The position numbers and the translations under genes were made by a program. 64,000 nucleotides of DNA from assembly GCA_000310025.1 (NCBI GenBank), contig FN649757.1, positions 321,005 through 385,004 of the forward strand. Direction: 5' to 3'. Within the stretch, counting starts at the first letter, position 1, and each line of letters starts with the position of its first letter. Shown one piece after another: positions 13,718 through 48,515 of this stretch. Source of the stretch: Ectocarpus siliculosus. Taxonomy: Eukaryota; Sar; Phaeophyceae; Ectocarpales; Ectocarpaceae. The notes beneath the pieces were generated by a model, which did no database searches, was not told the origin of the DNA, and saw only the letters and a list, made by a program, of their open reading frames with translations.

Positions 13718-13822
13718 CCATGGAACTCCATGGGAATATTCCATGGAGGTCCATGGAGGTCTATGGAGCCCCATGGAGCTCCATGGAACGTTCCATGCCA
13801 CACCTTGGAGCTCCATGGCATG
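13718..13822. repeat. CATG-core palindrome island 1 (TCCATGGA type)
   Basis: Nine or more copies of CCATGG or one-base variants occur in about 105 bp, mostly as TCCATGGA. They include nested self-complementary runs such as GGAGCTCCATGG and TCCATGGAACGTTCCATG. The stretch can fold on itself in many registers. Neighbouring sequence (an A-run at 13,626-13,640) shows no gene. Confidence 0.7.
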
Positions 13823-13879
13823 GCGTACATCCCCGAAAGGCTTGGCAGCAGTACAGACAGCAGTAGATTATTCAAAATA

Positions 13880-15020
13880 GCGCTTAAAGGGAACCAGGAC
13901 TTGCCCATATTCCGTCCACTGTAGGCTTCAAACTTGTCGGCGCAACCCGGAGAGCCCTTCCCCCAAAAAGTGAAAAAATGTGCAAAAACGCATCTCTAGC
14001 ACATCTACGCATACGCGGCGCAACCACGGCGCTGTGCACCTGCGGCGAAAACCAAGCACGAGAACGCGCCCGCCACGAGATCAATCGCCGCAAAGATCGA
14101 GGGAAGACGAACTGAGCGCCAGAGAGTATATATTGCACAACAAGTATTCAACTGGATTAGCGCAGATAATCAAGAAGGTAGGCACGGATGAAGTTGAAAC
14201 TTTCGTTCGCATACAGGAACCGTGTTCTATAATGCCCTGCCACGGCGCTGCGCCGGCAACACCAGGCATTCATTGGTCATGCTTCCTGCTGGCCTTGTGG
14301 TTGAACAGCACTTAACTTGAAATTGCCCTGCAATACGAACTATCTATATACAGCTGGGGTACGTTTGATTGGCGTCAGCTAGGTTTGAACTGATTATTAG
14401 TTGCTGTTTGGGTGCCCCTCGCCTGTGCTGCTGTTTGTTGTTGCACTGCCAACGCTTTAGTAGTGCGGACCCTCCACAGGAGTATGTAGTACATGGACAA
14501 ATGGGTAGTCTCTCTGTGCGTGTGTACAAGGGTCTACGAAAAAAAAATCCGGACACACAAGAGTTACCATGAATCGACATTACCATGAGGTTGCATACAG
14601 AAGATGGATATATTAAACATGCCTCAATCTCGTTACTACTGTACCCGTTCTGCATAATCTACGTCCTCGTAATCGATGCGGGCCCACACTCATCACCCAG
14701 TCGTGTACTACAGGAACATACGGAAACAAGCAGCCTAGCTCTCGTACAACAAGAAGTACGAAGAAAGTACATCCAGTAGTTACAGCAGCACAGCAGCAGC
14801 AGCAGTAGTAATATGTAGTACTACTGTAGTATCGATCAAAGGGCTCGAAATCAGTCCATTCAATTGGAACAGGTCATTGACCAGCTTTCACATTGAACCA
14901 CCTGCCTTGCAAACTTGCCCTTGCCGCCTCCTCTATCTATCTATAGAACTGCACAACAGGGAACATAGTCTCGCAAATTTACTCGTAGCCTTGGTCTTCT
15001 TGTAGGGTTGCGTTTGACTT
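13880..15020. other. Intergenic, microsatellites only
   Basis: No gene was recognised. A CAG/GTAGTA-type microsatellite lies at about 14,775-14,832 (CAGCAGCAGCAGCAGTAGTA and inverted GTAGTACTACTGTAGTA). Short open frames show no domain. Confidence 0.5.
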
Positions 15021-15023
15021 GAT

Positions 15024-15387
15024 TTGACCAATCGGCCACACGGACGGGCGACTGGCGGGCTATATATAGCGGCTGCCCCTGGGGTATGTAGGTATGAATG
15101 CGAAGATTGCGATGATGACCCTTTAGTGTGCGGGGTGTCTGCCATCTCTCGGGGGTCTCCACAGCTAGCTCCACAGAGAGAGCCAGCAGCGCCAGCGGTG
15201 ATGCACACCATGCGAGAACGGGACGCCGAAGCACCGACCGACGCGTCGTCAGAAAACCCGGGGATACAAGGGAATATCCCACCGCTCCCGAAGCGCGAGG
15301 TCAATGGTCTAACGACTACGGCATTTGACGGCATGCACGACTCCCCAACTCCCCCCCCGAAGCGCCGACGCCTCGGCGGAAAACCCG
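15024..15387 (+). other. Possible exon, hypothetical basic-tailed protein, cut by assembly gap
   Basis: The frame is open from 15,024 into the gap and reads like coding sequence: YECEDCDDDPLVCG, a Ser/Pro/Ala-rich middle, then PTPPPKRRRLGGKP, which looks like a nuclear localisation signal. No domain was recognised, and the opposite strand is also open, so strand and reality are uncertain. The right end is lost in the gap. Confidence 0.25.
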
Positions 15388-15472
15388 NNNNNNNNNNNNN
15401 NNNNNNNNNNNNNNNNNNNNNNNNNNNNNNNNNNNNNNNNNNNNNNNNNNNNNNNNNNNNNNNNNNNNNNNN
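15388..15472. other. Assembly gap (85 N) with low-quality flank
   Basis: There are 85 undetermined bases. The following 190 bp (15,473-15,665) are made of implausible C and G homopolymers typical of a failed read end, and should not be interpreted as biology. Confidence 0.95.
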
Positions 15473-16397
15473 GGGGGCGCCCCCCCCTTCTGGGGCCCCC
15501 CAAAATCCCCCCGGGCCTTTCCCCTTGGGTATTGGGAGCCCCTGTTCCGGGGAAACCCGGGGGGCCCCCCCCCCGCTTTGGGGGGGGGGGGGGTCAAAGG
15601 TCCAAAGGATTCCGCCACCCCCGCTTAGGGGACCCCCCCCCCCCCCCCCCACCCCCCCCCCCAATTGACCCCGATTTTCGGTTATTAGGCCTGTATGTGT
15701 CTTGAAATGTTTTTCGCACAGACCCGTGGTGTGTAGCAATTTTACCCATCCATGCATAACAACAGTCTCGAGGATTGGAAAAACTGCAATCCTCCGGAGG
15801 ATTGCCGAAAATGGGCGTCCTCTGATTTTGGTAAAACCCAATACTCTCGTACTCTAAGAGGATTCTCTGACCCAAAGCTCTAGAGGATAGTTGTCGGCTT
15901 GTCGATACTCTGGAGGAAACTCCAACCACAAACTCGGAAGGGAAGGACATGGAAAAAATTATCAGCAGGAAGTTGTAATTTTTTCCCCGTGGATTATTTT
16001 GCCAGAGTTCCCCGGGAGGGAATGGGGGACAAAATGTCTCCAGGAGAATGTGGCCGATGCGTTTTTCCAAGGGGAGACTGCTAGGAGCAATGCGCGTGAT
16101 GTTTATCATATCATCTTTTGTCGCTCTCGAATATTGCCCTCTGTGAATATCTTACACGCGTTGAATGTTGTCTATTCGAGAGTTGATCGCTTAGAAGAAA
16201 CATACACCAGGGAAGTATCGACGAATTCACACAGCCTTTGATGTTGAAACAGGGTTGAAACAGGGTGACTTACCATTATCTTTCCCAATTACGAAACATC
16301 TTACGACATACTCCGGAGTGGGTGCATCCCCGTGACGGAAAACAAGGCAAAATTAATGAGAACCGCCGATCATTCGCACGTGGTCACGAGAACTACC

Positions 16398-20424: not shown

Positions 20425-21163
20425 TGTTACGGCTACATTATTACGGCTACAGGAGTTGCACCCGGTGGGAATTTAGCGTTGTCCCCATAGGGTGGTTGAG
20501 AGTTGCCTACATTGGCAGGGCACCTTGTCTTGAGCTAGCCCCACCCCACAAGCTCACTCCTATTGTTTGAACTCCTTTTTGTTTGGCCTTCCAGTTCTTA
20601 GCAATAATCAAAGTACAGACCGTATCCACCACCGGAGACCTTCTCCACGTTCCAAAAGCCTCCTTGTAGGCTTTCTCTACCGCAGTTCAAGCGCGTCCAC
20701 CGAACTCGGTACCGATCGAGAGGCTGTTGTCGAATTCTGAGCAATCATACATGCAAATGTTTTGGTCTATCTTCCTTGAATTACTCTCTTGGGGCCATTT
20801 CAGGGTCCTGGAGCGATGTCCTGACACCGCCGTTGCTACATCTCAACTAGTCGCGTGATCCACCCAAAACCGTAGCCTCTCCATCGGTTACACTGCCGCA
20901 GGGTATTGGTTGGATGTGACCCATGCCATGTTGGACACACTCTGAACCGCGTGACAAGAGCATCGTCCCGGAAGCCAAATGGGCTGGTCAGCTCTGGGTA
21001 GGGTAGCCGGAGGAGGGTTTTCTTTTTCTTACCAACGAAACACATTCATTCATTCATATATTCCATCATCGATATCCGTAAGTCGAAATTCCATGGGTAC
21101 TGTGCCACCGGTGAATCAACAGACACGTGTGTGCAGTTGTCGTATGATGTTGATATTCGCGTG
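20425..21163 (+). repeat. Left LTR of the LARD-like element
   Basis: This aligns over its length with 24,239-24,969, including GGGAATTTAGCGTTGTCCCC and TCGGTACCGATCGAGAGGCT. It has small length differences (for example ATTCATTCATTCATAT here, ATTCATTCATAT there). Confidence 0.75.
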
Positions 21164-24238: not shown

Positions 24239-24969
24239 TGTTACGGTTACATTGTTACGACTACAGGAGTTCCACCTGGTGGGAATTTAGCGTTGTCCCC
24301 ATAGGGTGGTTGAGATTTGACTACATTGGCAGGGCACCTTGTCTTGAGCTAGCCCCACCCCACAAGCTCCCTCCTATTGTTTGAACTTCTTTTTGTTTGG
24401 CATTCCAGTTCTTAGCAATAATCAAAGTACAGACCGTATCCACCACCGGAGACCTTCTCCACGTTCCAAAAGCCTCCTTCTAGGCTTTTCTCTACCGCCG
24501 TTCAAGCGCGTCCACCGAACTCGGTACCGATCGAGAGGCTGTTGTCGAATAGGTCTGAGCAATCATAAATCCGATTTTTTTTTGTCTCCCTCCCTTGAAT
24601 TACTCTCTTGGGCCATTTCAGGGTCCTGGAGCGATGTCCTGACACCGCCGTTGCTACATCTCAACTAGTCGCGTGATCCACCCAAAACCGTAGCCTCTCC
24701 ATCGGTTACATTACCGCAGGGTGTTGGTTGGATGTGACCCATGCCATGTTGGATACACTCTGAACGGCGTGACAAGAGCATCGTCCCGGAAGCCAAATGG
24801 GCTGGTCAGCTCTGGGTAGGGTAGCCGGAGGAGGGTTTTATTTTCCTTACCAACGAAACACATTCATTCATATAATCCATCATCGATATCCGTAAGCCGA
24901 AATTCCATGGGTATTGTGCCACCGGTGAATCAATAGACACGTGTGTCGTATGATGTTGGTATTCGCGTG
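24239..24969 (+). repeat. Right LTR of the LARD-like element
   Basis: This is the second copy of the 20,425-21,163 repeat. It follows the polypurine tract immediately. Confidence 0.75.
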
Positions 24970-26690
24970 GAGATGAACACATTGGGACCAGGAACAATAA
25001 CAACATAACTGATACGTACATACAGGCGCAGCGGTTTGCAAGCCTCATGTGCAGATAGCATACAGCATGGTTGGGAGCGACGGGAATCGTGGTAGATGTA
25101 TGGTGGGAGGGCAGCTGGAGAAAACGTTTGAAAACGGCACCGCACGTGTCCATGCGCGACCGTGTCGATGATGCGGTGCGATGTTTCACTACCTGGTTTT
25201 CCCGTGTCGTCCCTAGTCGACGGCGCGGGCCGCTGTTGCAAGTGACGTAGAGAGCGTTCGCAGGAGAGCGTTCGCAGGAGAGCGTTCGCATGAGACGGGT
25301 AGATGGACAGTGGTAGACGTAAAATTCGTCGTGTGCGCCTAGTCGGTGAGGACTTGTTCAACTTGTGCTCCGGATCACGTGGCAACATTCATTATTCACA
25401 TCTAGCTGTGATGTTGGTGGATGTCCTGGATCAGCGGGCAAGTGATCAGTCGAGAGGGGGGGGAGAACAATTGCGAAACAAGGCCTCAATGTCCTGGCCG
25501 AGAGATCTACATACCGCACGACGGTTGGATTCGAAATGCTGGCTACTCCGAAGACCAAGCGTACCTCAAGTACTCCAAAAATTTGTCTGCTGTTGACTCC
25601 CTTCTGGATCTCGCGTACACGTTGTCGCTGGCCTTTTCGAAGGTACATTCATAATCGGTGGAACCCCATGGTATTTGTCGGTATGTAGGGATCTATCAAA
25701 CCGGTTCGACATGGTTGTGGGCAACCAGGGCCAATTGGTGTAGGTTCTTGTCTCTGTTTGTGTTCTCGTTAGGGCTGTCGGGGAAATGAAGTTGAGGAGT
25801 GTTCGGGCGCTGGTACAACGGCAAATTTCTTGCCAACATTTATTTGGCGTTACCAGGCACGTCCCCCTTGACGCTTCACAAAATATTTCGATTGAATGCC
25901 GCCAGCTAGAATCTCACATGGATTTCACCTAGCATTCCTTCACGCACACCTCCCCGCGTAGTGATACACCACCCATGGAGACGAACTTACGTAGGTGAAC
26001 TACTATTTCCTGGACCAATGGAACAGACGTCAAGGCTTCTAGTGAAACACATGGCAACGAGTTACGAGGTCCCTTAGACAACTAGCGAAGAGACAATAGC
26101 TTCTTGTGCTGCACTCTGGCATGGTTTGGCGATTTTGGCGATAGAATACGCAGAAGCCATTTCACCCAAAAGCCGGATACGGGTGTTGAAGGAGACATAT
26201 TTCACGAACAAGAGTCTGCCATGACCTGGAAACGTGGAAGTGACTTTGCTCCAACCTGGTCGTCATATTGTCTTGCGAAATCGACATACTTCATACCAAG
26301 TGAGTCGGTCATTCTCTCGCTTTGGTTCCTCGTAGTAGAGAATGACGTGCAGTGAAGGAAGAGAGTCTTGTACGCTTCTCTCACGACAAAGATCCAAGGC
26401 AACAACCGCAGGAAGGGTTATGTAGGGGGTTTCCGTGTGACCTCATATTGGAGCCCCGCCTACCTGGCAACAATGCTACGAACGCTGATTCTGTCTGCTA
26501 AACAGTTTATTGGTCGCGACCAAATGACTTCACTCCAAATACCCGGGTCCACAATTGGCAACCTAGTCTAACTATTGAGAGTCATTCTAGTCATGGGCAA
26601 GACAGGTTCACCCCATGAAGAGTGGCACATTGAGACGTCGTGATACAGTTTCCTGGGCAGGACGAAATCAACACCTTGCCTTGTCCGAGT
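24970..26690. other. Intergenic, no gene recognised
   Basis: A 15-bp unit (GAGAGCGTTCGCAG-type) is repeated three times at about 25,246-25,290. Open frames of 67-97 codons (for example at 25,303 and 26,104) show no domain or supporting splice sites. Confidence 0.5.
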
Positions 26691-27290
26691 CCATTCACGT
26701 CGCGACCAATCAACGGCCGAAGACCAGACCATGACCACGTCATTTTCAGGCCATGACCGTGCTGACTCCGTCAGGCGTGCCTATTGAGATATCAGATGCA
26801 GTAATCAAGGCGGGCCTATGGGCCGGTGGTAGTATCTCGGTGTTGACCGGGTCATACCGCTAAAACTACCGTACCAGGTCATGAACCATTCATGGGGGTC
26901 GTGACCGAGTTGCTGTTAGCTTGAGTTATCAACGTAGTGACGTCGTAGCGCCGTCGACATGGGCCGTGATTCGCCGATGACCTGCCCATGTCCTGATCAT
27001 GGCCTGGTCATGGCCGAGAGTCACGACCGAGTCATGCCCCGGTCATGAACCAGTCATGACCAAACCATAACCCAGGTCATTGCCGAGTCGTGACCGGTTT
27101 ATGACCCGCCCGTAACCGAGTCATGACTCAGTCACGGCCATGAACGTGTCATGACCTCGACAATGACCGAGGTCATGACTCAGTTTCGTGATCAAGTGAT
27201 GCCTCAGGACTAGGTCATGATCGGTTCATGACCAATTTAATGTAAATATGCCATATGGTCACGACCAACGATCAAACGATCACGAGACAA
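26690..27290. repeat. CATG-core palindrome island 2 (GGTCATGACC type)
   Basis: More than a dozen full or near copies of GGTCATGACC, or its halves GGTCATG and CATGACC, occur in 600 bp, densest at 26,990-27,240. Examples are AGTCATGACC, GGTCATGAACC, AGTCATGACT and TGTCATGACC. Spacing is irregular, so this is not a simple tandem repeat. It lies directly upstream of the protease-exon relic. Confidence 0.75.
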
Positions 27291-27343
27291 TGATTTTAGA
27301 GCAGCGATGTTTGATCCGTGATTCATTGGGAATTTTTCGATAG

Positions 27344-27478
27344 GCTTGGCATTACTTACTTCTTAATTCTATGGGCATCGTTCCTCGCCAAGGATGAAAG
27401 TCCTCGGGGAACTGTGCTGGACCTCCTTGTCCCTCCCAGTGTTGTTCTGACTTCACCCCTGATACGGTTCCCGTCAAG
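27344..27478 (+). pseudogene. Relic exon of a second subtilisin-like protease
   Basis: This segment is homologous to exon 8 of the intact protease (61,369-61,491). Both start after TTCGATAG and share TTC(C/T)TCGCCAAGGATG and CTTCCCAGTGTT or CTCCCAGTGTTG, and both end CCGTCAAG|GTGA with the donor preserved. The relic reads SFLAKDESPRG, then in another frame PSQCCSDFTPDTVPVK, so it carries a frameshift. Similarity continues through the following intron sequence to about 28,020, matching 61,492-62,105. Other exons of this paralogue were not found nearby. Confidence 0.7.
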
Positions 27479-28020
27479 GTGATGTGTGAGACTCAGGAAG
27501 AATTTTGAGGGACGATCCAGGCCGAAACCCTTCTCGGCTGTGGATGGCTGGCCAATAACAGATGTGGAAGTGGTAGCGAAAGAGGGGCCCGGTTGGAAGA
27601 AAATCCGTTCTGTTCAACGAGTGGTGGGAAAAATTGCATGAATCGAGGTCCACCGACAAAACCCCATGGTTGAAGCGTGGATCAGTCAATTGCGCAGAGT
27701 CGGACGTAGTCGAAAGCCATGTTTTTGCCAGAGATGAAGAAGTAGTTAGCCTCTCTCCGCCAGGAACGGGCGATATCTTTCCCACCGATTAGGCAAACTC
27801 CCGCCACACTCGGGAGTGCGAGTAACGTCGTAGAAACCAAATCAGACGCGGCAGGAACAGAATTATACTCAATGCTGTCATCGTAAGCTAGGACCTTCAA
27901 ACTATCCTCACGCGCCCCTACCGTGCCTGGGACACTTCTGGTGGACAGACATTTTTCCAGTGCACTCATTGCCACAGATTCTCACGTGTAGGGGGGCACA
28001 GCTATCGGGACCGCCTATGA

Positions 28021-29504: not shown

Positions 29505-32500
29505 TTAGATGAGTTTTACACATGTATTCGCGGGTTTCGCCCGCGTAATTAAACTAAAAAACCTCTGTCCCGGCACATTGAAACATTCATCATGGCCAGA
29601 GAAGTATCCACAGCCAGTCCCCTCGGCAATAGAATCATCCCCGTGCGTGGTTCCGTCCACCTCGCTCAACCCAGACGATATCACGGGCATATCGGACACT
29701 TGGGGCACCAAGCCAGCAATGATACCACAACTACCAAATCCCTCGCCAACACGTAAGTATCATCACTTACTTGTGCCTCCCCTGACCGAATCGAAGTGGA
29801 GATCCGAAGGAGACAAGCTCGGTCCGACAGGTGGACACACTTCTGGCGCAGGCCCTTGGTGCGATTCACACGAGCTAGTGCATGCCATAGGTTTGTCTGC
29901 GTTGCTGCATGAGGCAGACATCGAGCCGGTAGCATCCCCGGGAGTGACACCGGCCGACACGATGCTGCCACGGTCTTCTTCCTTATCGACAGCCTGCAGA
30001 TTATCTTCCGTGCGCTGAGTCCTTTGTGAACCGGCGCAGTCGCTAGCCCAGAGGGGCGGGGTGGAGAAAACAGTCAATGCTTGACTCGTGATGATACACT
30101 CGTATATCCTGCAACGAGAGCATTGACGAACCAGTGGGAGCCAGCACGGGCGAGGGTCGAATCATGTACATCCACATTATTCATCACCATAGACTCAACA
30201 GCAGTGAACCTAAGTAGTGATGTTTGTGTCGAAAAAAATGTCATGATCACGGAGGACAGGACGTGATTTTTTGTTGCGAAAGTCCTCATGCCGGTGTGCA
30301 GCAATGGCGCCCTGCAGGCAACACGTCGCGCGGAACCTCTAGGCCGGCCCGACACCAGATGCTGGTGTGCACTACAGAACAGCAGTAGTTCGGAGGAGTG
30401 TAGAAAGATGTAGGATCTGCTCCTTTTGGTTGAGGGATTGGTAGTGTACAGCAGCAGGAACAATACAGACCGTGGTGCAAAATATCAAGAACAGGCGTAA
30501 TATTGCCGGCATTTCCTCACAGCAGCGCGGCTGATTCACATTGGACAGACCATCTACATGTGAACGCGGGTGACCGGGGGCACCTGGTATACGCGTTGCA
30601 TGGTATTAGATCAAACGTGTTAAGTTGTGGCGAGTCTAGCCTTTGCACTATCTGCAAGGTGACATATTTTCTTTGGTCTGGTTTTCGTTACGTCTACCGC
30701 GCGCAGCAGCCAGCACAATCTCCCACACTACTGAAAGTTTTGTTAAAAGGCCCATGGGCGGCCCATGGACTCCCAACGAAGTGCCTACCGTGGGCACCTC
30801 AACCTAGTGCTCGCCACCGGCATATCAACCTAGAACTTAGCCATCGGCACATAAACCTAGGAGTTGGCCACCCAGCGCCAACGTAGAACGTATCGTGTGG
30901 GCTTGGGGTTAGGGTTAGGGTTAGCGTTGGGGGTATTAACCGTTATACTGCTCGTCCCAGAGCAGAAAACCTATTGCTTAGGAGTACACAGATTCCGGTT
31001 GAAGGGCTTTCAGTGGCCGCCCATGGGCTTGCCCATGGGTCACCCATGGACCGCAATGGGTACCACGTGGTGCCCATGGGTGTGACCCTTGGGTGACCCG
31101 TGGGTGGTTGAGCAAAACCGTAAAAAGTGTGGGAAACCCAGCCAGCACGACTTCGCCACAACGCCAAAACCATACGTGCACTGTCGACAAGTGTACTCAT
31201 GGCAGGGTGTGACGACAGCACGAAAAGCTTCAGTACACGTCATTGTAGAAGCTCCAAACGTCGTCAGACACGTGTGGACCACAACGTTTGGCATTCCGTC
31301 GCAACACATGCTGTCGCAAAGTGTGGCCTGAAAACAAAAACGGCCCCAATTATTTGGTGCACTTACATGAATCAAGTCTAATGTCACACGGCGACGACAT
31401 CCTATGAGTATATAGATATCATGATAACATGATAAATAACATAACTCCATGTAACATGATTTTGGGAATTGAACGAAAAAGAAAGCCACACTGCGGAGCT
31501 GTTCGAGTCCTCGGAAACCCGTGCCACTCCAAAGCCAAACCCTTTTCGGTTGCGCGACGACGAAGAGGCAAGCACTCAAAGCCGAAACAAGGCCAACGTC
31601 TAGTGTTGCGCCTGTAGACTAGACAATGTGTCAAGATTTGTTCGTGAGAAATCCGACAAAGACGGCTTTCCCGCACAGCAGTGTGCGTTGGTGTTGATGA
31701 AAAGGTGGACCCCCAGCGCATGTATCATTGTAGGAAATCAACCCTTCGACGCACCTGCACTGGAAATCATCGCAGAATGCAGATATCCCACGCCACTCCT
31801 CCAAAGGTGGCGCTGGCAGAGAGTAAGACGGGCGGGATGGATTGTAGACCTCCCGCAACCGAGCATACAGCCCCCGAGCTCTGGAGTCGTCAATCGCTGC
31901 TAGGGCCCCGAGGACGCATTGTGCAAGGTGACACCTATATTGTACACAATGGGAGGAACGGTGGGGAGCAGAAGCAGAAGATGAGAATGTCAATGTCGTG
32001 TACCACATACGGTTCAGCACACGGTTGCCATCCCTTTAACATGAACGCCAGAACTGCCTATGGGTTATATCCCATACTGTAGTGGTCGAGCTCCTACGCA
32101 GGAAGCCACAGAAATCATTTTGAACAACGAATGCTGGCACTAGGAGTACTCTTCTTGCCCTGTAGACTCACGGCGCAGCTTGTCCCATAGCTGGTCACGA
32201 TCACGGATCGAAGACATCAAGACGATCAATGTCAGATATGGGGACATGAATGAGGTCGGCTGTCGGCTTACCATTGCATCATGGAGCCACACATGCCAGG
32301 GTACCGCTCGTATACCTCGACGCAACGCCCGAACCTCTCCAGCGCACCAACAGCGTCCCCTTTCGCTACTCTTTGGAATGACAGGATTCTGTCAAACACG
32401 GCACGTGGCAATGTAGATATGAAGAATAATCAGTGAATACGACAGTGTACAACTTCTCCACTACCCGGAGTTGTTCGTATGGCAGTAAAAATAGGTTGTG

Positions 32501-38832: not shown

Positions 38833-38837
38833 TATGT
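38833..38837. repeat. Target-site duplication TATGT, left
   Basis: TATGT here equals 45,925-45,929. Five base pairs is the usual length for Copia integrases. Confidence 0.85.
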
Positions 38838-39168
38838 TATTAGATATACTCGTAGCATAGCATGGTGGGTGATATCTTACGTATTGATGTAGTGACGAGT
38901 GCGGAGGAACAGGAAGTTGCTTCATATTTTCCTTGGGAGTGTGATGCAATGGTGGAGATTCATGGACATTCGTTAGGTACTTTGAGCGTGATGAGCGTGA
39001 CCCGTGACTCCATGCCGTGACCGATTGACGAGCTGAAGCACGCCCCCGATGACCACTATACGTTTTACAACACGTTTTCCTATACGTCCCTACCCTACCA
39101 CGGCCCGTCATGGCCCAGCTGCTCTACACTCCCAACACAAAGAACTGAGCCACCCGAATTATCGATCA
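38838..39168 (+). repeat. Left LTR of the Copia element
   Basis: 331 bp, beginning TATTAGATATACTCG and ending GAATTATCGATCA. It differs from the right LTR only at one base (TTTTCCTATACG here, TTTTCCAATACG there). The ends TA...CA depart from the usual TG...CA. Confidence 0.95.
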
Positions 39169-39258
39169 CGCTGCTAGCTTATGACACGTCGTCAACGATA
39201 TTCGCGTCGAGCTTAGTTTGGAGTTACATCGCTTTGCAGCGATCAGCAGCAGCCACCG

Positions 39259-42210
39259 ATGAGCGACACCGAGCAAGATCGAGTGAGCGCCCGACTAGCA
39301 GAGGAGGACGCCCGGATCAACGACTTGGTCCAGAAGGTAGCAGCAAAACTGGCCGAGATTACAAGGGAACAAGACGAGCAGCAGCAGAGGACAGATCACG
39401 TCTGGAGCGGGAACGACCACGAGACACGCCACCAGCAATATGCGGGGCGACCATCGGCCGGCCCGTCCACAGACGACATCGCCCGCACTCTCGCCGACGC
39501 CCTGACCAGCCGTCTTCAGATGCCACCCAGAGACATGGGTAGAGTACCAAGTAGCGCAGCGACTCTTAGGATGACTGAGGTTAAGCGCCTAGCGCCGTGG
39601 GATGGTGAGATTCGGCAAGGCGGGGATGAGCAAGCAAAGTTTTTGATTTTTCGATCGAATATGACTGCGATGTTTGCGCAAGAAGGAGTCCAGGAAGTGG
39701 TATTGAGTGACTGCAGAATTCCAGTTGGGCTAGAAGGAGTAGACATGGAGGACTTACGTAGGATGCACTCGCCTGAAACGGTAGAAAAGGCGATCACGGC
39801 GTGGAATTTGATCATCACGACAATCACCTACATGCCTGTCTTGACCCAGATTATCGCTGATGGTAGTCCCAGTGGAGGTTGGAAAGTATTTCTAGCATAC
39901 TACGAACCCCAGGCGAGAGCAGAGAAAACACGGTTGACTTCAGAATACCATGCCATCAAAATGCGAGTGGGTGAAACTCCGCACGAATATTTCGGGAGAT
40001 TTGCTGTTTTGCGCAATAGGTTAGCCTCACACGGCGTCACATACCCCGACGATGATGCCAATTTGCACGTTGTGTACAACTTGTCTTCAGAGTATAAGAT
40101 GGAGAAAGCCATGCTGCGTGCCCTTCCGCCCCCCAATTTAACCCGTCAGCACCTTGAAAAGGTCGTGAAAGATGCCCATCAGGATATGGTGACCGCACGG
40201 GAGGGGGAGCCGCAGAATGGCGCGGGGCACGCTTTCGTCGCTGCCGGTGGGAACCGGGGCGACGGACGTGTCCAAAATGGGTCCAGTGGGAACGGCGGGG
40301 GTCAGGACGGCAATGGAGGCGGTCGGAGCAGCAACAACAGGGCGGACGGAGACAAGCGCTGCGACTATCATCCGTACCCGTCGCACACCAACAGCGAGTG
40401 CTACACCCAGCGTCGCCAACGGAAGAAGCAGCAGCCCAAGCAGCAGCAGCCTCAGCAACAGCCTCAGCAACAGCCCCAACAACAGCAGCGGCCTCAGCAG
40501 CAACAGCAACCTCGGGGACCGCCGCCACAGAAGCCGAGCCGCAGTGGGGGGGGCTGGGGGGGTGGGCCCCAGCACGGACCTCACGGCGGCTACGGAGGAC
40601 AGCAGCATCACGGACATCCAGCTCCCCCCCGCCCACTGCAGCAGCAGTGGCGGCCCGCGTACGGGCATGCAAATGTGAGTCAAACGTATGGTGCCGCGCC
40701 CCATGGGGGGCTCGCGTATAGCACCGAGTACGGGGGGTGGGAGCAGCAGCCACAGTATCAGCAACCGTCGCCAGACTACAGCTACCAGCAGCAGCCGTAC
40801 TACCCGCCTCCGACACCGTACTACCAGCAGCAGCAGCCACCGCCGCAGCCTCCGCCACCGCCGTCGTTCCAGCAGCAGCAGCAGCACTCGACCCATGCCC
40901 CGTACCATTCGCCTCCTCCCGACGTAGCCGGATCCCCTGGGCATCTTCACTTCCTCAAGACACATTTTGTGTCACAAGGCGAGATCTTTCCAAGTGTGGT
41001 AGCGCGCGAGAATGGTGGTGGTTTTGCTTTGTCTGTTCAGAGTCGCCCTTCGCAGATTGGTAGAGAGCAAGTTTGGGCCGACAGCGGCGCAAGCAACACG
41101 TTTGTCAGCAGTAGCGAAAACGTGTTCGACATGAAGCCGATCCCAGCAGGAAAAGAGTTCATCCAAGTAGGGAATGGTGCCTATCTGCGCGTGCAATGTG
41201 TTGGTAGCATCAACATGGCATTTCACATGCCTGGCCCTTCGGACGAGACGGATTTTTGCGTGCAGATGTCGGACGTGTATGTAGTGCCCGGCATCACGTT
41301 CAATCTGTTTTCCCTGCACCATACGCAGCGTAGGCCAAAAATTACGTTGGACGAGAATGGCCTGCATCTTTTCAATGGCCAGCTTTCCTTTGCCTGCTCC
41401 GATGTAGGATGTTCTCTTTGGGCCACTCGCTTGCCTCCCACGTATACCGGTAGTGCTGTGACCCTCGGTCCCAATGCCCTCCCTCGTGTGTCTCCCCAAG
41501 CTCCCTCGCCTAGCGTTGGAACAGGCCTTGTTGTGGCGAACCCCTCTTTCCCCCCAAACACAGGAGCGGACACACCTGCGAGTACGAGCTTCCAGTCCGC
41601 CGGTGGTGCCACTGCCGGTGTTGTACCTTCGAGTTCGAGTGCGAGTCCGAGCTTCCCATCCGCCACTTCCGGTGTAGTGCTTCCGCGTTGTGCATTCCCG
41701 CCCATCGACGTAGATGTAGTGCCAACGACTATTGCAGACTTCCAGCCTGTAATTACGGCTGCCTTAGCATCGTCTGAGATTGTTTCTCCCTCTGTCGTTG
41801 ACCCGAGCGATTTTCGTGAAGTTGTGATCAACCCCCTCGTCCCCCAGGACCATTTGCCTCTCATGGATATCAGCATGTTCCTTGATGTTGGCCTGATGGA
41901 TGGAAAAGACTCGGTCCCACAGGGTGATTTTTTTCCGGATGCCCTTGATGTTTGCGATTCCGCAACACCCCCTCCCCCCGCGTTTCCCGTGATGAGTGAT
42001 GACTTGGAGTGCCTGAAAGGTTTTGTTGCTGGATGCAATGAGCAGCAAGCCGTCGTTCCCCCCTCCCTCTCGCATGCCTTGGCGATTATCTCCCCCGGTC
42101 CTTCCCCATTTTCGATAGGAAAATCCACGCCCACCATCGATATTATTTTGTTCCATGCCTCCACCGGGCATGTCAACGAATTTTTGATGCGTGAAACGGC
42201 CAAGCAGTAG
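39259..42210 (+). CDS. Copia Gag, aspartic protease and GAG-pre-integrase region
   Basis: An open frame of 983 codons ends at a TAG at 42,208-42,210. The N-terminal 300 residues resemble Copia Gag (KVFLAYYEPQARAEKTRL, MRVGETPHEYFGRFAVLRNR). A Cys/His motif (CDYHPYPSHTNSEC) replaces the usual zinc knuckle. A long Gln/Pro/Gly/Tyr-rich tract follows (about 40,420-40,930). The protease active site is WADSGASNTFV (about 41,074), and the GAG-pre-integrase box (ASTGHVNEFLMRETAKQ) runs into the stop. The same frame continues after it with CVGCVEAKGRR. The first ATG after the left LTR was taken as the start. The low-complexity tract is longer than usual for Copia. Confidence 0.88.
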   Translation: MSDTEQDRVSARLAEEDARINDLVQKVAAKLAEITREQDEQQQRTDHVWSGNDHETRHQQYAGRPSAGPSTDDIARTLADALTSRLQMPPRDMGRVPSSAATLRMTEVKRLAPWDGEIRQGGDEQAKFLIFRSNMTAMFAQEGVQEVVLSDCRIPVGLEGVDMEDLRRMHSPETVEKAITAWNLIITTITYMPVLTQIIADGSPSGGWKVFLAYYEPQARAEKTRLTSEYHAIKMRVGETPHEYFGRFAVLRNRLASHGVTYPDDDANLHVVYNLSSEYKMEKAMLRALPPPNLTRQHLEKVVKDAHQDMVTAREGEPQNGAGHAFVAAGGNRGDGRVQNGSSGNGGGQDGNGGGRSSNNRADGDKRCDYHPYPSHTNSECYTQRRQRKKQQPKQQQPQQQPQQQPQQQQRPQQQQQPRGPPPQKPSRSGGGWGGGPQHGPHGGYGGQQHHGHPAPPRPLQQQWRPAYGHANVSQTYGAAPHGGLAYSTEYGGWEQQPQYQQPSPDYSYQQQPYYPPPTPYYQQQQPPPQPPPPPSFQQQQQHSTHAPYHSPPPDVAGSPGHLHFLKTHFVSQGEIFPSVVARENGGGFALSVQSRPSQIGREQVWADSGASNTFVSSSENVFDMKPIPAGKEFIQVGNGAYLRVQCVGSINMAFHMPGPSDETDFCVQMSDVYVVPGITFNLFSLHHTQRRPKITLDENGLHLFNGQLSFACSDVGCSLWATRLPPTYTGSAVTLGPNALPRVSPQAPSPSVGTGLVVANPSFPPNTGADTPASTSFQSAGGATAGVVPSSSSASPSFPSATSGVVLPRCAFPPIDVDVVPTTIADFQPVITAALASSEIVSPSVVDPSDFREVVINPLVPQDHLPLMDISMFLDVGLMDGKDSVPQGDFFPDALDVCDSATPPPPAFPVMSDDLECLKGFVAGCNEQQAVVPPSLSHALAIISPGPSPFSIGKSTPTIDIILFHASTGHVNEFLMRETAKQ

Positions 42211-42860
42211 GGCGTACGATTGGTGGGGGAGATGCAGCCGTGTGTGGGCTGCGTGGAAGCGAAGGGTAGGCGGGCCCCGGTGCCGCGGCGTGGCACCCGC
42301 GCGGAGGTACCGTTCGGCAAAATCCACATCGACCTCACGGGCCCGTTCTCTGACGCGTTGGACGGCTCCCGGTACCTGATCATGTTCGTGGACAGCGCAT
42401 CGCGGTGGCAACGGGGGTACGGGATGCGGGCCAAGAGCGACACCCTGAAGTTCGTGCAGCGGTTTCTCGCCGACATGAACGGCATGGGCACTCCGGGTTG
42501 TTTCCGCATGGACAACGGCGGCGAGTTCACCGGCTCCGCGTTCACCTCGTTCTGCGACGCTGCTGGCATTCGGCGCGAGTACACCGCCCCCGACACCCCC
42601 AAGCAAAACGCGGTGGTCGAGAGCGCCATATGGCGCGCCATATAGGGGGGGCACGCCGCGCGCCGCCACATCCTCGCCATGGGCCACGTCGACCTCTCCT
42701 CCATCCCCAACGTCAGCGTCAACGGACACCGCCTGTGGCTCGCGTCGGCGCTGTGGGCATCCGCCTGCTTCAACCGCTCGGCGACGAAGGCCAACCTGGA
42801 CTGGATGTCGCCTTTCGAGGCGTTCTTCGGCCGGAAACCGCCCCTCACCGTCGTCCCTTT
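42211..42860 (+). pseudogene. Copia integrase, interrupted
   Basis: The segment continues the Gag frame after the TAG. CVGC supplies the second half of the zinc-binding region. The catalytic D-D-E residues are visible as HIDLTGPF, FRMDNGGEF and NAVVES (about 42,615). A second TAG follows at 42,643-42,645 (WRAI-stop), then the frame continues as NVSVNGHRLWLASALWASAC and MSPFEAFFGRKPP. A frame change occurs at the T-run near 42,857. The segment is much richer in G+C than the gag and RT parts, especially at third codon positions. Confidence 0.85.
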
Positions 42861-42862
42861 TT

Positions 42863-43906
42863 TTGCAGGAGGGGATGATGCGCGTGAAGCGGGCTACCAA
42901 GGCGGACGTCCAATCCGCGCGGTGCTTCTACCTGCACGGCGCCAACAACCACTCGACGTCTACCGCTGTCGTTCTTCGCGCTGACACCGGTCGCCTCGCC
43001 CTCACCAACATCGTCGTGTGGGTCAACCGCCGGGCAGGAGCGCCGGCCCCGGTGCCGGGCATCGGGGGGGGTCTTCGGTCACCGCGGCGCCCTCGCAGGC
43101 CGCCGCCGTACCTGCGGCCGATGACGCACCGCCGCCGCCCCCGCTATCCAGGACGTACAGGTACACCCCGCCTGCAACAGCGACCACCGCACCGCTCCCG
43201 CCCGCTTCTCCGCCGATCTTCACAGGATCATCAGCCCCGTCGCCGATCTCCGACGCCCCATCATCAGCCCCACCGTCGAGCCACGCCGCCCCGTTCGCCC
43301 CCGGGCCTGCCGCCGCAGCCCGCCAGCGCCGCCGCACCCGCTCCTCCGCACCCGCCGCTCTCGAAACGAGCCGTCAAGGAGTTGGGACGAGAGGACACGA
43401 GGGTCCACGGCCGCACGCGCGGCGATGGAGTGCGGTTCATGGGAGATCAACAACAACCGCCGTCAGGTGGCGGCGCCGCTCTCCACCACCGCCTTGGACT
43501 GTTAGCGATGATGGACAAGGACTCCCTCATCTCGTCGCTGGCCACCCGCGAGGCCGTCGACCAAGGACGGTGTGACCCACCGCCTCCGCCGCCGCCGGAT
43601 CCGAGCTTTGGAGGCCGTGAGAGCGGGGGAGCAGTGGGAGCTGGGGGGCCCGTGGATTCCGGGGGGGGGGGGAGACCGCACATGTTCGCCTCGATGTTCG
43701 CCACCCGCGAGGACGTGGACGCTGCTCTTCGCGCCGAGCGTCCTCCTGACAAGATGCCGGACCTTCCTCACTGCCTCGCCAGCGACCTCCGAGTGCCGAA
43801 AACGTTGAAGGAGGCCATCCGGTCTCAACATTCAGCGTTGTGGGATGATGCAGTCGGTCGAGAGTTTTTCGGTTTGCTGGATGCAGGAACTTTTAGTCCG
43901 GTGTAG
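42863..43906 (+). pseudogene. Copia integrase C-terminus and linker to RT
   Basis: After the frame change the reading resumes with CFYLHGANNHSTSTAVVLRA, a Pro/Arg/His-rich low-complexity linker, and the pre-RT region (FGLLDAGTFSPV). It ends at a TAG at 43,904-43,906. The linker keeps the high G+C of the integrase part until about 43,790. Copia elements usually have a variable proline-rich linker here. Confidence 0.75.
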
Positions 43907-45324
43907 CAACCAGTAGAGAACGCCATCAATGCCAAGTGGGTTTTTAACTGTAAAGCAGACGAGTACGGATGGCCGACAAAATTCAAGGCAAGACTTGTAG
44001 CACGGGGGGACATGCAGAGGGCTTCGATTGATTTTGGAGAATTGTTTGCACCCACCGTATCAGTGTCTAGTGTGCGCTTGTTGGCAGCATTAGCATGTGA
44101 GCAGAATCTTGACTTGTGCCATTTCGATATTCAGCAGGCTTTTGTGCAGTCTGAGCTTGATGAGGATGTTTTCATGCGCTTACCGCAGGGTTGTGGTTTT
44201 CTGGCCTGATCGTGAAGCTGTGCAAGAGTCTGTATGGTTAGAAGCAGGCATCACGACATTGGCATGCGCACCTGACGAGGTGCTTGTTGCTTTTAGGTTT
44301 TCCGCAGTGTCTGGCGGATGCATGTGTTTTTCGATTGATGGAGGAGGGACGTGTGATCATGATCATCGTGGTCCACGTGGATGATATTTTGGCCGTAGGG
44401 CAGAAGGAGAGGTGTGACAAGTTTGGCAAGGATCTCAACGAGATGGTCCCCGTGAAGAACCTTGGAGAGTTGAGGTGGTACTCCGCGTGCTTTTACGAGA
44501 GAGACGTAGAGAGAGGGTTGCTGAAGCTTTCACAACAGAGGTTTGCCGAAGAGTTGGCTGCAGAGTATGGCGTTGAGTGGGGGCAGAGTGTGCCTCTGCC
44601 GGTTAGCGTTAAGCTCACCGACTTTGACGTGAATGAAGCGAGTGCTGACGTCCCGTTTGGCGAGTTGATAGGATCCCTGATGTGGTTGGCCACTCAAACA
44701 AGGCCGGACATCGCGAATGCAGTTCGAGCAGTAGCGCGGTATTGCGCGTCTCCCAAGATGGTGCACTGGAAGGCAGCACTCGGTATTTTAGGGTACGTAC
44801 GCAGGACGAGTTGGATGGGGATTACATTTGAGAGGGGCGTCGTGACAGGTGTGAGCATGCAGGTGTTTGTGGATGCCGACTATGCAAGCAAGGCGGCAGA
44901 CCGGAGGTCTGTATCAGGGGGGCTAGTGATGTGTGGGCGGGGGGGTGTGACTTGGTTTTCCCGAACGCAGAAATGCGTCACCCTTTCCACCACGGAAGCA
45001 GAGTATGTGGCAATTGCCGACGTCTTGAAGGAAGTGTTGTTCTTAAGGCAGGTGTGGTGTTTTATGTTGCCAGATGCGGGTATGCCGTGCATCCCGGTGT
45101 TCGAGGATAATCAGGGAGCGATTCAGATTGCGCACAACCCGATCACGAACTCCAACTCGAAGCACATCGATGTACGGCATCACTTTATCAGGGAGCTGGT
45201 AGAGAGGAAGGAGACTTCAATTACTCATGTGCCGACGCAATTCCAGCATGCAGACTTCTTGACGAAGGCTATTAGCAAGGAGTCTTTTGCGTTGCACCGT
45301 GACTTTGTGATGAACTTGCAGTGA
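43907..45324 (+). pseudogene. Copia reverse transcriptase and RNase H, interrupted
   Basis: RT starts directly after the TAG with NAKWVFNCKADEYG and FKARLVARG, then CHFDIQQAFVQSELDEDVF and MRLPQG. A frame change near 44,205 leads to IVKLCKSLYG, then TAG (44,239) where the family has YGLKQA, then KQASRHWHAHLTR. From 44,284 the frame is open to the stop at 45,322-45,324. It contains the catalytic VVHVDDILAVG (usual YVDD), GSLMWLATQTRPDIANAV, and the RNase H motifs FVDADYASKAADRRSVSG, STTEAEYVAIADV and NSNSKHIDVRHHFIRE. Confidence 0.9.
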
Positions 45325-45593
45325 AGGAAGGGTTTTGGGGTCGATTCGTATTCTGTAGTGGAGGGAGAAAGAGAAAGACGAGATTGGACAAGAGAAAGAG
45401 AGAGTCTGGTGAAGGTCGTAGGAGTTTTGGTTGTGTTGGTATATTTTCCTTGATTATTTTGGAGGAGTATTGGTTGTGTTGGGATTTTTCTTGATTGTCT
45501 TTGAGGAGTTTTTCTCGTTTTGGAGATGGTGGTAACGGTGAGGGTAATATTGATATTTTGCCGGCGCATGACGATGCATACGAGCAGGGGGGC

Positions 45594-45924
45594 TATTAGA
45601 TATACTCGTAGCATAGCATGGTGGGTGATATCTTACGTATTGATGTAGTGACGAGTGCGGAGGAACAGGAAGTTGCTTCATATTTTCCTTGGGAGTGTGA
45701 TGCAATGGTGGAGATTCATGGACATTCGTTAGGTACTTTGAGCGTGATGAGCGTGACCCGTGACTCCATGCCGTGACCGATTGACGAGCTGAAGCACGCC
45801 CCCGATGACCACTATACGTTTTACAACACGTTTTCCAATACGTCCCTACCCTACCACGGCCCGTCATGGCCCAGCTGCTCTACACTCCCAACACAAAGAA
45901 CTGAGCCACCCGAATTATCGATCA
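45594..45924 (+). repeat. Right LTR of the Copia element
   Basis: 331 bp, 330 identical to the left LTR. It is followed by the second TATGT (45,925-45,929). Confidence 0.95.
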
Positions 45925-46076: not shown

Positions 46077-46115
46077 CGGAGCGGTTGCAATACGGACGGG
46101 GTTGCAACCGCTCCG
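46077..46115. repeat. Perfect 14-bp inverted repeat
   Basis: CGGAGCGGTTGCAA (46,077-46,090) pairs with TTGCAACCGCTCCG (46,102-46,115) across an 11-base loop. It lies inside dispersed repeat copy B; copy A has only a remnant (GGTTGCAACCGCACCG near 1,160). Confidence 0.6.
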
Positions 46116-46747
46116 CCCCGCCGAGAAAAAACGTTCCGTGAACACACCTTGTCAAGTTTACAGCAGTGAGATCGTTTAGAGGAACGATGCAGAGGAATCG
46201 CCCCCCACTGGGCAGTGACGCCACCCGTCATGAATACCTGGTATGAATCTCGATCGGTGTTTCGCGTACATTTAACACACCTGATATTCTCATTCTCATA
46301 TACGGCGAACTTAACCCCTGTGGGTCTAGCTCTTGTTTCTTTTTCGGCAAAAAAAAAAAAAGGAGGAAAGAGTGCGGGGAGATAGACAGAAGTACAGCAG
46401 AAAGAGACGAGTGATTCTGTAGACGCAACAGCTATCTCCACCCATAGGCCATGAGGGCTGCCCGCGACAGGACGATGGGCACAGACAGGGTCATAGAAGG
46501 GTCGATGCGTGGTCGCGGTGCGGCCGCTAGGGCAGGTAAGGCTTGTAGACCTCGACAAGATCAGTCGTCAAGCCACTCAAACTACTCTATTTTCAGTATA
46601 TTCGAATGATCAGTGAAAACTATCAGTGAGAGGGCTTGTAGACCCATGTAGCTGGTTCTTGCTTCTGTACTTCTCTGTCCCCTCCCCGATGTGAGCCCTG
46701 CCGGCTCACTACAGCTCCTGTGATTTTCCCACAATTCCCGCTCGAGT

Positions 46748-47050
46748 GGTGTTTACACATTGATAGTAGATCTTTAGGACTAACGCGTTCTGATTGGTCG
46801 GGCGTTGTTCGGCGTTGGTTCTGGCGGCCGATTCCTCTCCAGCGCCCTCTCCCCGTTCCGCATTCCGAGCACGCGGCGTAGCCGCGTGCCGCCCAGTTCG
46901 CGGCCGCTAGGCTGTGCTTTGGCCGTGGGTGAGGGATAGGGTTACGGTAGATGTGGGGTGAGCAACCTAGCCTTGCTCGCGTGAAGAACGTAGCCTTGCT
47001 ACGTTCATCATCGGTTAGTCCTAAAGAGTTACAAATATCAACGTGTAACC
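46748..47050. mobile_element. 303-bp MITE-like element
   Basis: The left arm at 46,748-46,785 contains TTTACACATTGATA and CTTTAGGACTAAC. The right arm (47,006-47,050) is its reverse complement, with GTTAGTCCTAAAG and TATCAACGTGTAA. The arms are about 40 bp and imperfect. The interior is G+C-rich and non-coding, with small hairpins (CACGCGGCGTAGCCGCGTG; CGTAGCCTTGCTACG). No target duplication was recognised. Confidence 0.55.
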
Positions 47051-48090
47051 AAGGCTCCAATTCTCACAAGCACGCAAGCACACCAGCACACACCTACGTT
47101 TGCATCAGTGGCTCTCTAGGTTCGGGCGAGGGTATGTGTTGGGCTACGATGATAGTGTATGTTATAGTATGTTGGACTGGTCTACATATACTGCTGCTGC
47201 TGGGTAGTACAGCTGCTGACATGATGACTGCTGGATCTTGGGAGTGTACGATTTTTTAATTGGAGGATATGCAGCATACCATGATATCCTGGCCTGGTTG
47301 GGCTTGAATTGCTCCTTTTGCTGTCCCCCTGTCTTTGCGTTGCTTGCTAGATTCGGGCGAAGGCATGTATGTATGTAGAGTTAGTGATGTGTGTCTCTGT
47401 GAAAGGATATGGGGAGAGATTCATGGTGGCATCCTCATTTAGAGCAGCGTGCATTGTACACGAGCCCCCTACAAACAGCACTGAAACGTCTTTCCAGGAC
47501 TGAGCGTGATTTTTTTTTTTTCGAATATTGGCCATTCCAGGGATCTTGATATACCCGCTGGCACTAAGGTCTTTTCATTGGTCATTGGGTACACGGTCGA
47601 TGCGAAAAATACAGACACACCTATACCTATTGACATGCCAACACCTGGCGTGGAGGGATACAGGACGGCAACTCCATGGCATGCCACAACACCAGCATGT
47701 ACAAATGATCAATCAATGATCTGTCAGGACGCCTGTAGACCCAAAATGGAAACGAATCTCTGCAGTCCACCGCGAACAACCCGAGAGGTCCGCCGCTTGC
47801 CGACTGCCAGGTTGCTCTTGTGACGTACTGCAATGACGTGGCCGCACCAAATGGGGAGCTATCGCTCCCGAGAAGCACACACCAACGCGTACATGGCCTC
47901 TGTGCGGTACTGGCACGATGTCTATGCATGTGACACTTTGAATTGACCCTCGTCCGACGGACGGAAAGCCACCAATTCGTCTGTGCATTTGAGGTTCGAC
48001 AATCCACAGGAGATTGCCCCACAGACCAACACATCCCACACACCTTTTTATTTTCGGCGCCAGTGACGTGCAACAACGATGCTCAGTCAC
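47051..48090. other. Intergenic, no gene recognised
   Basis: CTG microsatellite at about 47,205-47,220 and a T-run at 47,511-47,522. A minus-strand frame at 48,090-47,627 has no known domain. Confidence 0.45.
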
Positions 48091-48180
48091 CCCCTGGTGA
48101 ACAACAAACGTAGGTGGAAAACAAACTTTTTTCTCGTTCCTCGCTCATCCTGTACGAAACCCTGCTAATGGCTGTTTTCT
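48090..48180 (+). repeat. Dispersed repeat, homologous to the left flank of the DIRS-like element
   Basis: About 80 bp (GTGGAAAACAAACTTT...CGTTCCTCGCTCATCCTGTA...GAAACCCTGCTA) match 3,845-3,922. In one place the DIRS-like element follows, in the other the palindrome island. Confidence 0.6.
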
Positions 48181-48184
48181 AAAC

Positions 48185-48515
48185 CCGCCATGCAACGCCA
48201 TGGGCACTTCATGGGCTGCCCATGAACCGGCCATGGGGGTCCCATGAAGTGCCCACGAATAGCCCACCGTGGGCACTTCAACCTAGAACCTGCCACCGCA
48301 TATCAACCTAGAACTTAGCCATCGGCACATCAACCTACGGTAGAACGGAGCCACCCAGCGCCAACATATGTAGCACGTATCGTGTGGGCTTAGGGTTAGG
48401 GTTAGGGCACATGGGTTGCCCGTGGGCAGCCCATCTGGGTGCCCCATGGGCAGCGCACAACGTGGTGCCCATCGGTGATTTGGCAAAGCTGCAGAAAGTT
48501 GTGGGATATCCGGTA
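48185..48515. repeat. CATG-core palindrome island 4 with interstitial TTAGGG (copy 2)
   Basis: CCCATGGG, GCCATGGGC and related palindromes flank the same central block as at 30.8 kb, with TAGGGTTAGGGTTAGGG at 48,391-48,407. This copy is shorter between the TTAGGG run and the right-hand palindromes. Confidence 0.7.

What the first reader, a model, noticed from the sequence alone, without database searches (positions are those of the whole stretch)
13718..48515. Islands of short palindromes sharing a CATG core, each with its own flanks
Four islands (13,718-13,822; 26,690-27,290; 30,745-31,110; 48,185-48,515) consist of dense, irregularly spaced short palindromes. All are centred on CATG, but each island is uniform for different flanks: TC-CATG-GA, GGT-CATG-ACC and CC-CATG-GG (twice). 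They are not tandem repeats of fixed period and encode nothing. Independent islands converging on one core suggest a CATG-directed process, such as a binding or modification site array, hairpin-driven expansion, or palindromic mini-element insertion. I know of no named repeat family with this property; that it is undescribed is inference.
Basis: partly seen in the sequence, partly recalled or inferred. Interest (0 to 1): 0.72.

Follow-up and report, generated by a model that had tools for sequence, protein, structure and literature searches.

The report
CATG repeat arrays in mobile elements
The clusters of short CATG-centred repeats are real and recur in steps of about one DNA helix turn, and in the best-preserved case they sit at the two ends of what looks like a small mobile DNA element, so they seem to be an unusual version of a known kind of transposon end.

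Summary
The islands are real. In a scan of all 256 8-bp palindromes (one mismatch allowed) the three densest clusters are TCCATGGA (13717), CCCATGGG (31020) and GTCATGAC (27007), with 6-8 copies per 120 bp against at most 3 in 10 shuffles of the window. Three details of the finding do not hold. Within runs the units are tandem: 34 of 58 steps between units are 10-13 bp. Islands 3 and 4 are two copies of one dispersed element (82.7% over 179 bp), so there are three families. Island 4 has one perfect CCCATGGG only. Island 3 is bounded by a 10-bp direct repeat, CAGCCAGCAC (30707-30716, 31139-31148), found nowhere else in the window on either strand, just outside inverted ends that match 18 of 27 (0 of 2000 shuffles). 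Best reading: a ~422-bp non-autonomous transposon with short subterminal tandem repeats, as in Mutator-like/Foldback elements. Unusual are the self-complementary unit and the shared CATG core. Only one of the four islands has both ends resolved. The organism is unidentified (brown-alga-like is inference), and no genome or transposase partner was available.

The parts
13715..13822 (.). Island 1: ~10 tandem units of about 10 bp, TRF consensus TCCATGGAGC, with interleaved GGAGCTCC-type dyads; no element boundaries found
   Evidence: no TIR or TSD
26690..27270 (.). Island 2: decayed array of GGTCATGACC-like units, ~11-bp steps in the right part (26985-27235), irregular in the left part; possible outer inverted ends at 26510 and 27268, no TSD beyond the unit itself
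   Evidence: inverted ends reached by 0.5% of 200 shuffles with narrow flanks but 11% with wide flanks
30707..30716 (+). Left 10-bp direct repeat CAGCCAGCAC (putative target site duplication of the island 3 element)
30717..30747 (+). Left terminal inverted repeat of the island 3 element, AATCTCCCACACT...GTTTTG
   Evidence: inner ends alone 0 of 2000 shuffles, 18 of 27 ungapped
30748..30794 (.). Left subterminal CCCATGGG array of island 3 (2 CATG, 1 CGTG unit)
30787..30920 (+). Conserved core: 27-bp tandem repeat (about 3 copies) and TTAGGG repeats; homologous to 48266-48407
31020..31104 (.). Right subterminal CCCATGGG array of island 3
31108..31138 (-). Right terminal inverted repeat of the island 3 element, ends AGTGTGGGAAACC
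31139..31148 (+). Right 10-bp direct repeat CAGCCAGCAC
48187..48275 (.). Left array of island 4: CATG at exact 11-bp steps (48199-48243), mostly not palindromic beyond CATG, arranged as an imperfect inverted repeat (24-nt arms, 88%)
48266..48407 (+). Conserved core of island 4: second copy of the island 3 core, with TTAGGG repeats
48408..48475 (.). Right array of island 4
48476..48510 (-). Right end of the island 4 element, homologous to the right TIR of island 3; left end not resolved
   Evidence: 0 of 2000 shuffles for 31105-31138 vs 48476-48510, while the flanks beyond are unrelated (1004 of 2000)

Best explanation
Islands 3 and 4 are two old copies of one small non-autonomous DNA transposon (about 422 bp in copy 3, inverted ends, 10-bp target site duplication in copy 3). 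It has a conserved core flanked on both sides by subterminal arrays of ~11-bp CATG-centred units whose consensus is self-complementary. Shown: homology of the copies, arrays on both sides of the core, the shared right end that stops where the direct repeat begins, the 10-bp direct repeat with symmetric inverted ends on island 3, and the ~11-bp spacing within runs. Inferred: that a Mutator-like transposase supplied in trans binds the units, about one per helical turn on one face, and that unit number changed by slippage or unequal exchange so that the arrays no longer align between copies. Islands 1 and 2 are inferred to be arrays of other, more decayed families of the same general kind, each with its own flank letters around the shared CATG core.
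For: Copies 30752-30920 and 48231-48407: 82.7% over 179 bp, E 9e-39; the core aligns while the outer arrays do not align colinearly. CAGCCAGCAC occurs exactly twice in the window, both strands searched, at the two flanks of island 3, each copy separated by 5 nt from CCCACACT (30722) and AGTGTGGG (31126). Inner ends of island 3 compared as inverted repeats: 0 of 2000 shuffles reach the score, 18 of 27 ungapped. Right ends of copies 3 and 4 outside the arrays: 0 of 2000 shuffles; the sequence beyond the predicted end is unrelated (1004 of 2000). An exact 10-mer at a random spacing of 300-700 turned up in 2 of 400,000 trials (5e-6). Units step by 10-13 bp in 34 of 58 cases. CATG better conserved than the rest of the unit. 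The three densest palindrome clusters have a CATG core. Published parallels: 8-9 bp TSD and, in 10 of 12 long-TIR families, 9-15 bp subterminal tandem repeats in mosquito MULEs (PMC5225508, passages); 8-10 bp TSD in 45 of 53 Tm1 elements with a variable number of 13-15 bp repeats (PMC3169594, passages).
Against: Only one copy has a clean duplication. Copy 4 has no resolved left end: no inverted partner for its right end (384 of 2000 shuffles), and its best flank repeats, 9 of 10 (48108/48517) and 8 of 9 (48147/48508), come with 20-nt ends matching only 6 and 7 of 20. The best partner for the island 3 left end lies at 48022-48052, is weak (107 of 2000), and overlaps the supposed duplication, which if real would make that part of the element. 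The first TIR alignment (1 of 200 shuffles) ran past the duplication into outside sequence; that outside part alone is not significant (113 of 2000). No transposase in the 23 ORFs given to Pfam, which are not all ORFs of the window. Islands 1 and 2 show no TIR with TSD. Island 4 units are mostly not palindromic beyond CATG. The conservation test uses runs that I anchored on CATG. With three families a shared core could be chance: (1/16)^2 = 0.004 if all cores were equally likely, 0.007 with the 8.6% share of CATG among shuffled palindromes.
Confidence: 0.57

Rival explanations
1. Ordinary decayed minisatellites: 10-11 bp tandem repeats that happen to be self-complementary, amplified by slippage, with no function; two of them were carried along inside an unrelated dispersed repeat.
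For: TRF finds island 1 as period 10. Fold stability is explained by unit content, not unit order. Islands 1 and 2 have no element boundaries. Period-11 arrays with another core are as common elsewhere: GTAC x5 52 stretches vs CATG x5 44 in viral contigs.
Against: The three densest clusters share CATG. CATG is better kept than the rest of the unit. Arrays occupy both sides of a conserved core in two copies. A fully self-complementary unit is rare in period-11 CATG x5 arrays elsewhere: 0 of 44 viral loci and 3 of 120 prokaryotic loci, against 3 of 4 island consensuses here (read by eye; island 1 has 2 of 3 pairs).
Confidence: 0.26
2. Hairpin- or cruciform-driven palindrome arrays (foldback DNA), selected or expanded because they fold.
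For: Six array segments fold better than dinucleotide shuffles, z -3.1 to -6.8, against 0.55 for the island 3 core and -0.49 for a control stretch. Long imperfect inverted arms exist, such as 24 nt at 88% in island 4.
Against: Random reordering of the units folds as well in all five arrays tested. A tandem self-complementary unit gives this for free. It does not explain one shared core.
Confidence: 0.09
3. Host regulatory or modification-site arrays (a dimeric DNA-binding protein, or methylation at CATG), unrelated to transposition.
For: CATG dyads near helical spacing with a conserved core. A Sola-1 transposon of Ectocarpus encodes a protein with ParB-like and DNA methyltransferase domains, so element-directed modification has been proposed in brown algae (PMC12477816, section 5).
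Against: No methylation, binding or expression data here. Islands 3 and 4 are parts of a dispersed repeat. Flanks differ between families.
Confidence: 0.08

Closest known systems
Mutator-like / type-2 Foldback elements with subterminal tandem repeats (Muta1 and other Aedes MULEs, PMC5225508; Tm1 of root-knot nematodes, PMC3169594; abstract and passages of both seen)
   Same: Target site duplication of 8-10 bp; inverted ends; arrays of short (9-15 bp) subterminal tandem repeats whose number varies between ends and between copies; many non-autonomous derivatives
   Different: Here the unit consensus is itself self-complementary with a CATG core, ~11 bp with almost no spacer; the one resolved copy is ~422 bp; no transposase known; one clean duplication only
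CACTA / En-Spm subterminal repeats bound by TnpA (PMC8195511, passages seen)
   Different: The ends here are not CACTA and the flanking duplication is 10 bp, not the 3 bp that I recall for CACTA
Helentron/DINE-1 non-autonomous elements (PMC4067079, passages seen)
   Same: Palindromic sequences near both ends; some copies hold tandem repeats
   Different: That paper finds no target site modification for these elements; island 3 has a 10-bp duplication
Ectocarpus subtelomeric satellite (PMC11541908, passages seen)
   Same: Contains TTAGGG motifs, as the islands 3/4 core does
   Different: The satellite is an array of ~98-bp monomers with TTAGGG at three independent places; here the TTAGGG copies are contiguous and the unit is dispersed. 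The satellite's own sequence was not seen, so homology was not tested

Membership tests
TIR (cut-and-paste) non-autonomous transposon | Terminal inverted repeats | tested here: met
   Island 3 inner ends: 0 of 2000 shuffles, 18 of 27 ungapped. Islands 1 and 4 not significant, island 2 ambiguous
TIR (cut-and-paste) non-autonomous transposon | Flanking target site duplication | tested here: met
   Island 3: CAGCCAGCAC exact, 10 bp, only two occurrences in the window on either strand, symmetric. None fitting for islands 1 and 2, unclear for 4
TIR (cut-and-paste) non-autonomous transposon | Dispersed copies whose homology ends at the TIR | tested here: inconclusive
   Two copies; homology of the right ends stops at the predicted end; left end of copy 4 unresolved
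Mutator-like / Foldback | TSD of about 8-10 bp | tested here: met
   One copy, 10 bp
Mutator-like / Foldback | Subterminal tandem repeats of 9-15 bp, variable number | tested here: met
   10-11 bp units; arrays not colinear between the two copies
Mutator-like / Foldback | MULE transposase in an autonomous partner with the same ends | not testable with these tools
   No genome held; none among the 23 window ORFs given to Pfam
CACTA / En-Spm | CACTA termini and 3-bp TSD (TSD length recalled) | tested here: not met
   Termini AATCTCCC / GGTTTCCC with a 10-bp duplication on island 3
Helentron / DINE-1 | No target site modification | tested here: not met
   10-bp duplication on island 3
One known satellite | All islands copies of one satellite | tested here: not met
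   Only islands 3 and 4 match each other in the blastn self-comparison (E up to 1e-3)

The most novel reading that the evidence does not exclude
Several unrelated families of small transposons in this genome have converged on, or inherited, transposase-binding arrays with a fixed CATG core and family-specific flanks. The flanks would act as a specificity code read by diverging transposases, with sites stacked about one per helical turn.
Probability: 0.15. Interest if true: 0.55.

Novelty: new variant of a known kind. Interest (0 to 1): 0.32.

Why it matters
If the arrays are transposase-binding ends, the flank letters around CATG would show which elements share a transposase. This would help classify the many unassigned elements in such genomes (51 DNA/Unknown and 94 Unknown families in Ectocarpus; PMC12477816 Table 1). 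It would also show how binding arrays keep a core while their flanks change. If they are only minisatellites, the matter is minor.

Tried and rejected
Own-genome search: no genome is held, so genome-wide copy number, empty sites and CATG density could not be measured. A scan of viral contigs for an exact 22-nt piece of the islands 3/4 core gave 0 matches. Pairs of GGTCATGACC or GCCCATGGGC in viral contigs gave 5 and 7 stretches; 11 of the 12 hold two such sites close together and one holds three in a row, so they are not long arrays; dropped. A period-11 CATG x5 scan found 44 viral stretches against 52 for a GTAC control, so these contigs show no CATG-specific excess. Long-range hairpin order: not supported. 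Rfam: 0 matches in the window at gathering thresholds. tRNA genes: 0, with a program run under the bacterial code. tblastx of 58000-64000 against the window gave many short, weak matches and nothing on the islands that I could use. Ten full-text searches listed no title or abstract opening that describes a CATG-cored self-complementary subterminal repeat; most lists were cut short and full texts were not read for this. The organism was not tested directly: brown alga is inferred from TTAGGG repeats, copia and RT/recombinase-like ORFs and 52.7% G+C.
Full report
What is there. The four stretches were read directly. Against 1000 dinucleotide shuffles of each stretch, CATG-centred 8-bp palindromes are in strong excess in islands 1-3 (4, 4 and 4 against 0.2, 0.4 and 0.2; 0 of 1000 shuffles) and not in island 4 (1 vs 0.3, p 0.29; CATG itself 8 vs 4.1, p 0.018). 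Against other segments of the window the excess is less extreme (fractions 0.0008, 0.037, 0.009 and 0.13). A scan of all 256 8-bp palindromes with one mismatch ranks TCCATGGA (8 in 120 bp at 13717), CCCATGGG (6 at 31020) and GTCATGAC (6 at 27007) first. The next, GGAGCTCC (5), is the second dyad of island 1; six G+C-rich palindromes reach 4; 10 shuffles of the window reach at most 3. A separate count of inverted 7-mer pairs in 300-bp windows peaks at the islands (69, 85, 31 and 40 for islands 1-4), at 15.3-15.9 kb (212, around an N gap and a C run), and more weakly at 12.6-13.1 kb (25), with several windows at 14-21 elsewhere.

Spacing. Between units, 34 of 58 steps are 10-13 bp: 9 of 9 in island 1, 12 of 28 in island 2, 6 of 10 in island 3, 7 of 11 in island 4. 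Examples with exact CATG are 26987/26998/27009 and 48199/48210/48221/48232/48243. Best periods are 10.5, 11.2, 10.8 and 11.7, reached by 0, 0.4, 2.4 and 0.8% of 500 jittered controls, though the signal in island 2 is modest (0.34). Three CATG at exact period 11 occur 5 times against 0.02 expected, all in islands 2 and 4. The arrays are thus tandem runs at about one helical turn, broken by indels; the left part of island 2 is irregular.

Relations. Self-BLAST finds islands 3 and 4 homologous (30752-30920 vs 48231-48407, 82.7%, E 9e-39) and no match among islands 1, 2 and 3/4. The core (27-bp tandem repeat and TTAGGG repeats) aligns well; the palindromic flanks do not align colinearly. Flank letters are more alike within than between islands (0 of 2000 permutations), with islands 3 and 4 indistinguishable (3.09 vs 3.10) and island 4 loose within itself (2.29). 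There are three families, not four.

Element boundaries. Island 3 is flanked by CAGCCAGCAC at 30707-30716 and 31139-31148, the only two occurrences in the window on either strand. Inside, each end has 5 nt and then CCCACACT / AGTGTGGG; the inner ends compared as inverted repeats match 18 of 27 and no shuffle of 2000 reaches the score. The first alignment (1 of 200 shuffles) also ran into sequence outside the duplication; that outer part alone is not significant (113 of 2000). An exact 10-mer at a random spacing appeared in 2 of 400,000 trials. The right ends of copies 3 and 4 outside the arrays are homologous (0 of 2000), and the flanks beyond are not (1004 of 2000), which supports the right boundary independently. 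The left end of copy 4 is unresolved: its best partner for the island 3 left end, at 48022-48052, is weak (107 of 2000) and would run into the supposed duplication; the best flank repeats of copy 4 are 9 of 10 and 8 of 9 with no matching inverted ends. For island 2 an inverted pair at 26510 and 27268 is reached by 0.5% of 200 shuffles with narrow flanks and 11% with wide ones, and the only flank repeats are the unit itself or weak. Island 1 shows neither.

Folding and function. Six array segments fold, as single-stranded DNA, better than dinucleotide shuffles (z -3.1 to -6.8), while the island 3 core and a control stretch do not. Reordering the units gives the same stability (p 0.40, 0.10, 0.63, 0.25, 0.31 when cut between dyads; 0.54, 0.71, 0.88, 0.40, 0.73 when cut at dyads), so there is no evidence for selection on long hairpins. 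In seven hand-picked runs anchored on CATG, CATG keeps 97 of 108 majority letters against 127 of 184 for the rest of the unit (Fisher p 3e-5). This favours a constrained site over neutral decay, with the caveat of the anchoring. In the same runs 38 of 81 flank pairs are complementary (about 20 expected by chance), but only 3 of 18 in the left array of island 4 and 3 of 9 in the island 3 run.

Comparison. Mosquito Mutator-like elements have 8-9 bp duplications and, in 10 of 12 long-TIR families, subterminal tandem repeats of 9-15 bp, with variable numbers in non-autonomous derivatives (PMC5225508, abstract and passages). Tm1 has 8-10 bp duplications in 45 of 53 complete elements and a variable number of 13-15 bp units (PMC3169594, abstract and passages). 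Island 3 meets these structural features; the transposase criterion is untestable here. CACTA and Helentron membership are contradicted by the 10-bp duplication. The Ectocarpus TE annotation reports 1 MuDR family and many unclassified ones (PMC12477816, abstract, sections 5 and 15 and passages).

Background control for self-complementarity. Elsewhere, period-11 CATG x5 arrays are seldom fully self-complementary: 0 of 44 viral and 3 of 120 prokaryotic loci; GTAC control 2 of 52. Chance is 1 in 64. Three of the four island consensuses here are (by eye).

Context. Island 2 lies just upstream of 27334-28022, which is 60% identical to 61359-62093; the 27 kb copy has stops in the aligned frames. The ORF 59201-60223 has a sub-threshold Peptidase_S8 match (20.0 bits, cut-off 21.8). 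The window also holds a copia-like element with 99.7% identical LTRs at 38838-39168 and 45594-45924.

Verdict. A real observation with a partly inaccurate description. It is best read as subterminal arrays of small non-autonomous transposons: clear for island 3, likely for 4, open for 1 and 2. The shared CATG core in three families is suggestive but rests on n=3.

Noticed in passing
window 38838-45924: Copia-like LTR retrotransposon with 99.7% identical LTRs (331 bp), lying inside a copy of a repeat also present at 53-1421 (homology on both sides, 68% and 71%). Pol_BBD passes the Pfam cut-off; RVT_2 and gag matches fall below it
   Followed up: partly
window 30909 and 48390: Contiguous TTAGGG repeats inside the conserved core of the islands 3/4 element; why such an element carries telomere-like repeats is unexplained
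   Followed up: partly
window 8457-12248: RVT_1 ORF followed by an ORF with an ALOG_dom Pfam match; reading this as a DIRS/Ngaro-type retroelement with a tyrosine recombinase is inference
   Followed up: no
window 27334-28022 and 61359-62093: Diverged duplicate (60%) next to island 2; the 27 kb copy has stops in the aligned frames, the 61 kb copy lies near a sub-threshold subtilase match
   Followed up: partly
window 12790-12878: Imperfect hairpin, 72% self-complementary, next to a repeat pair (12462-12551, 12876-12968, 87%); possibly another small inverted-repeat element
   Followed up: no
window 20425-21163 and 24239-24969: Direct duplication of about 740 bp at 93% identity
   Followed up: no
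window 13148-13418 and 48690-49105: A diverged repeat (75-77%) lies near island 1 and near island 4, on opposite sides of them; its relation to the islands is unknown
   Followed up: no
islands 2-4: Where the core departs from CATG it is often CACG or CGTG, and CGCG occurs at the edges of island 2; seen by eye, not tested; could reflect CpG loss from an older CGCG core
   Followed up: no
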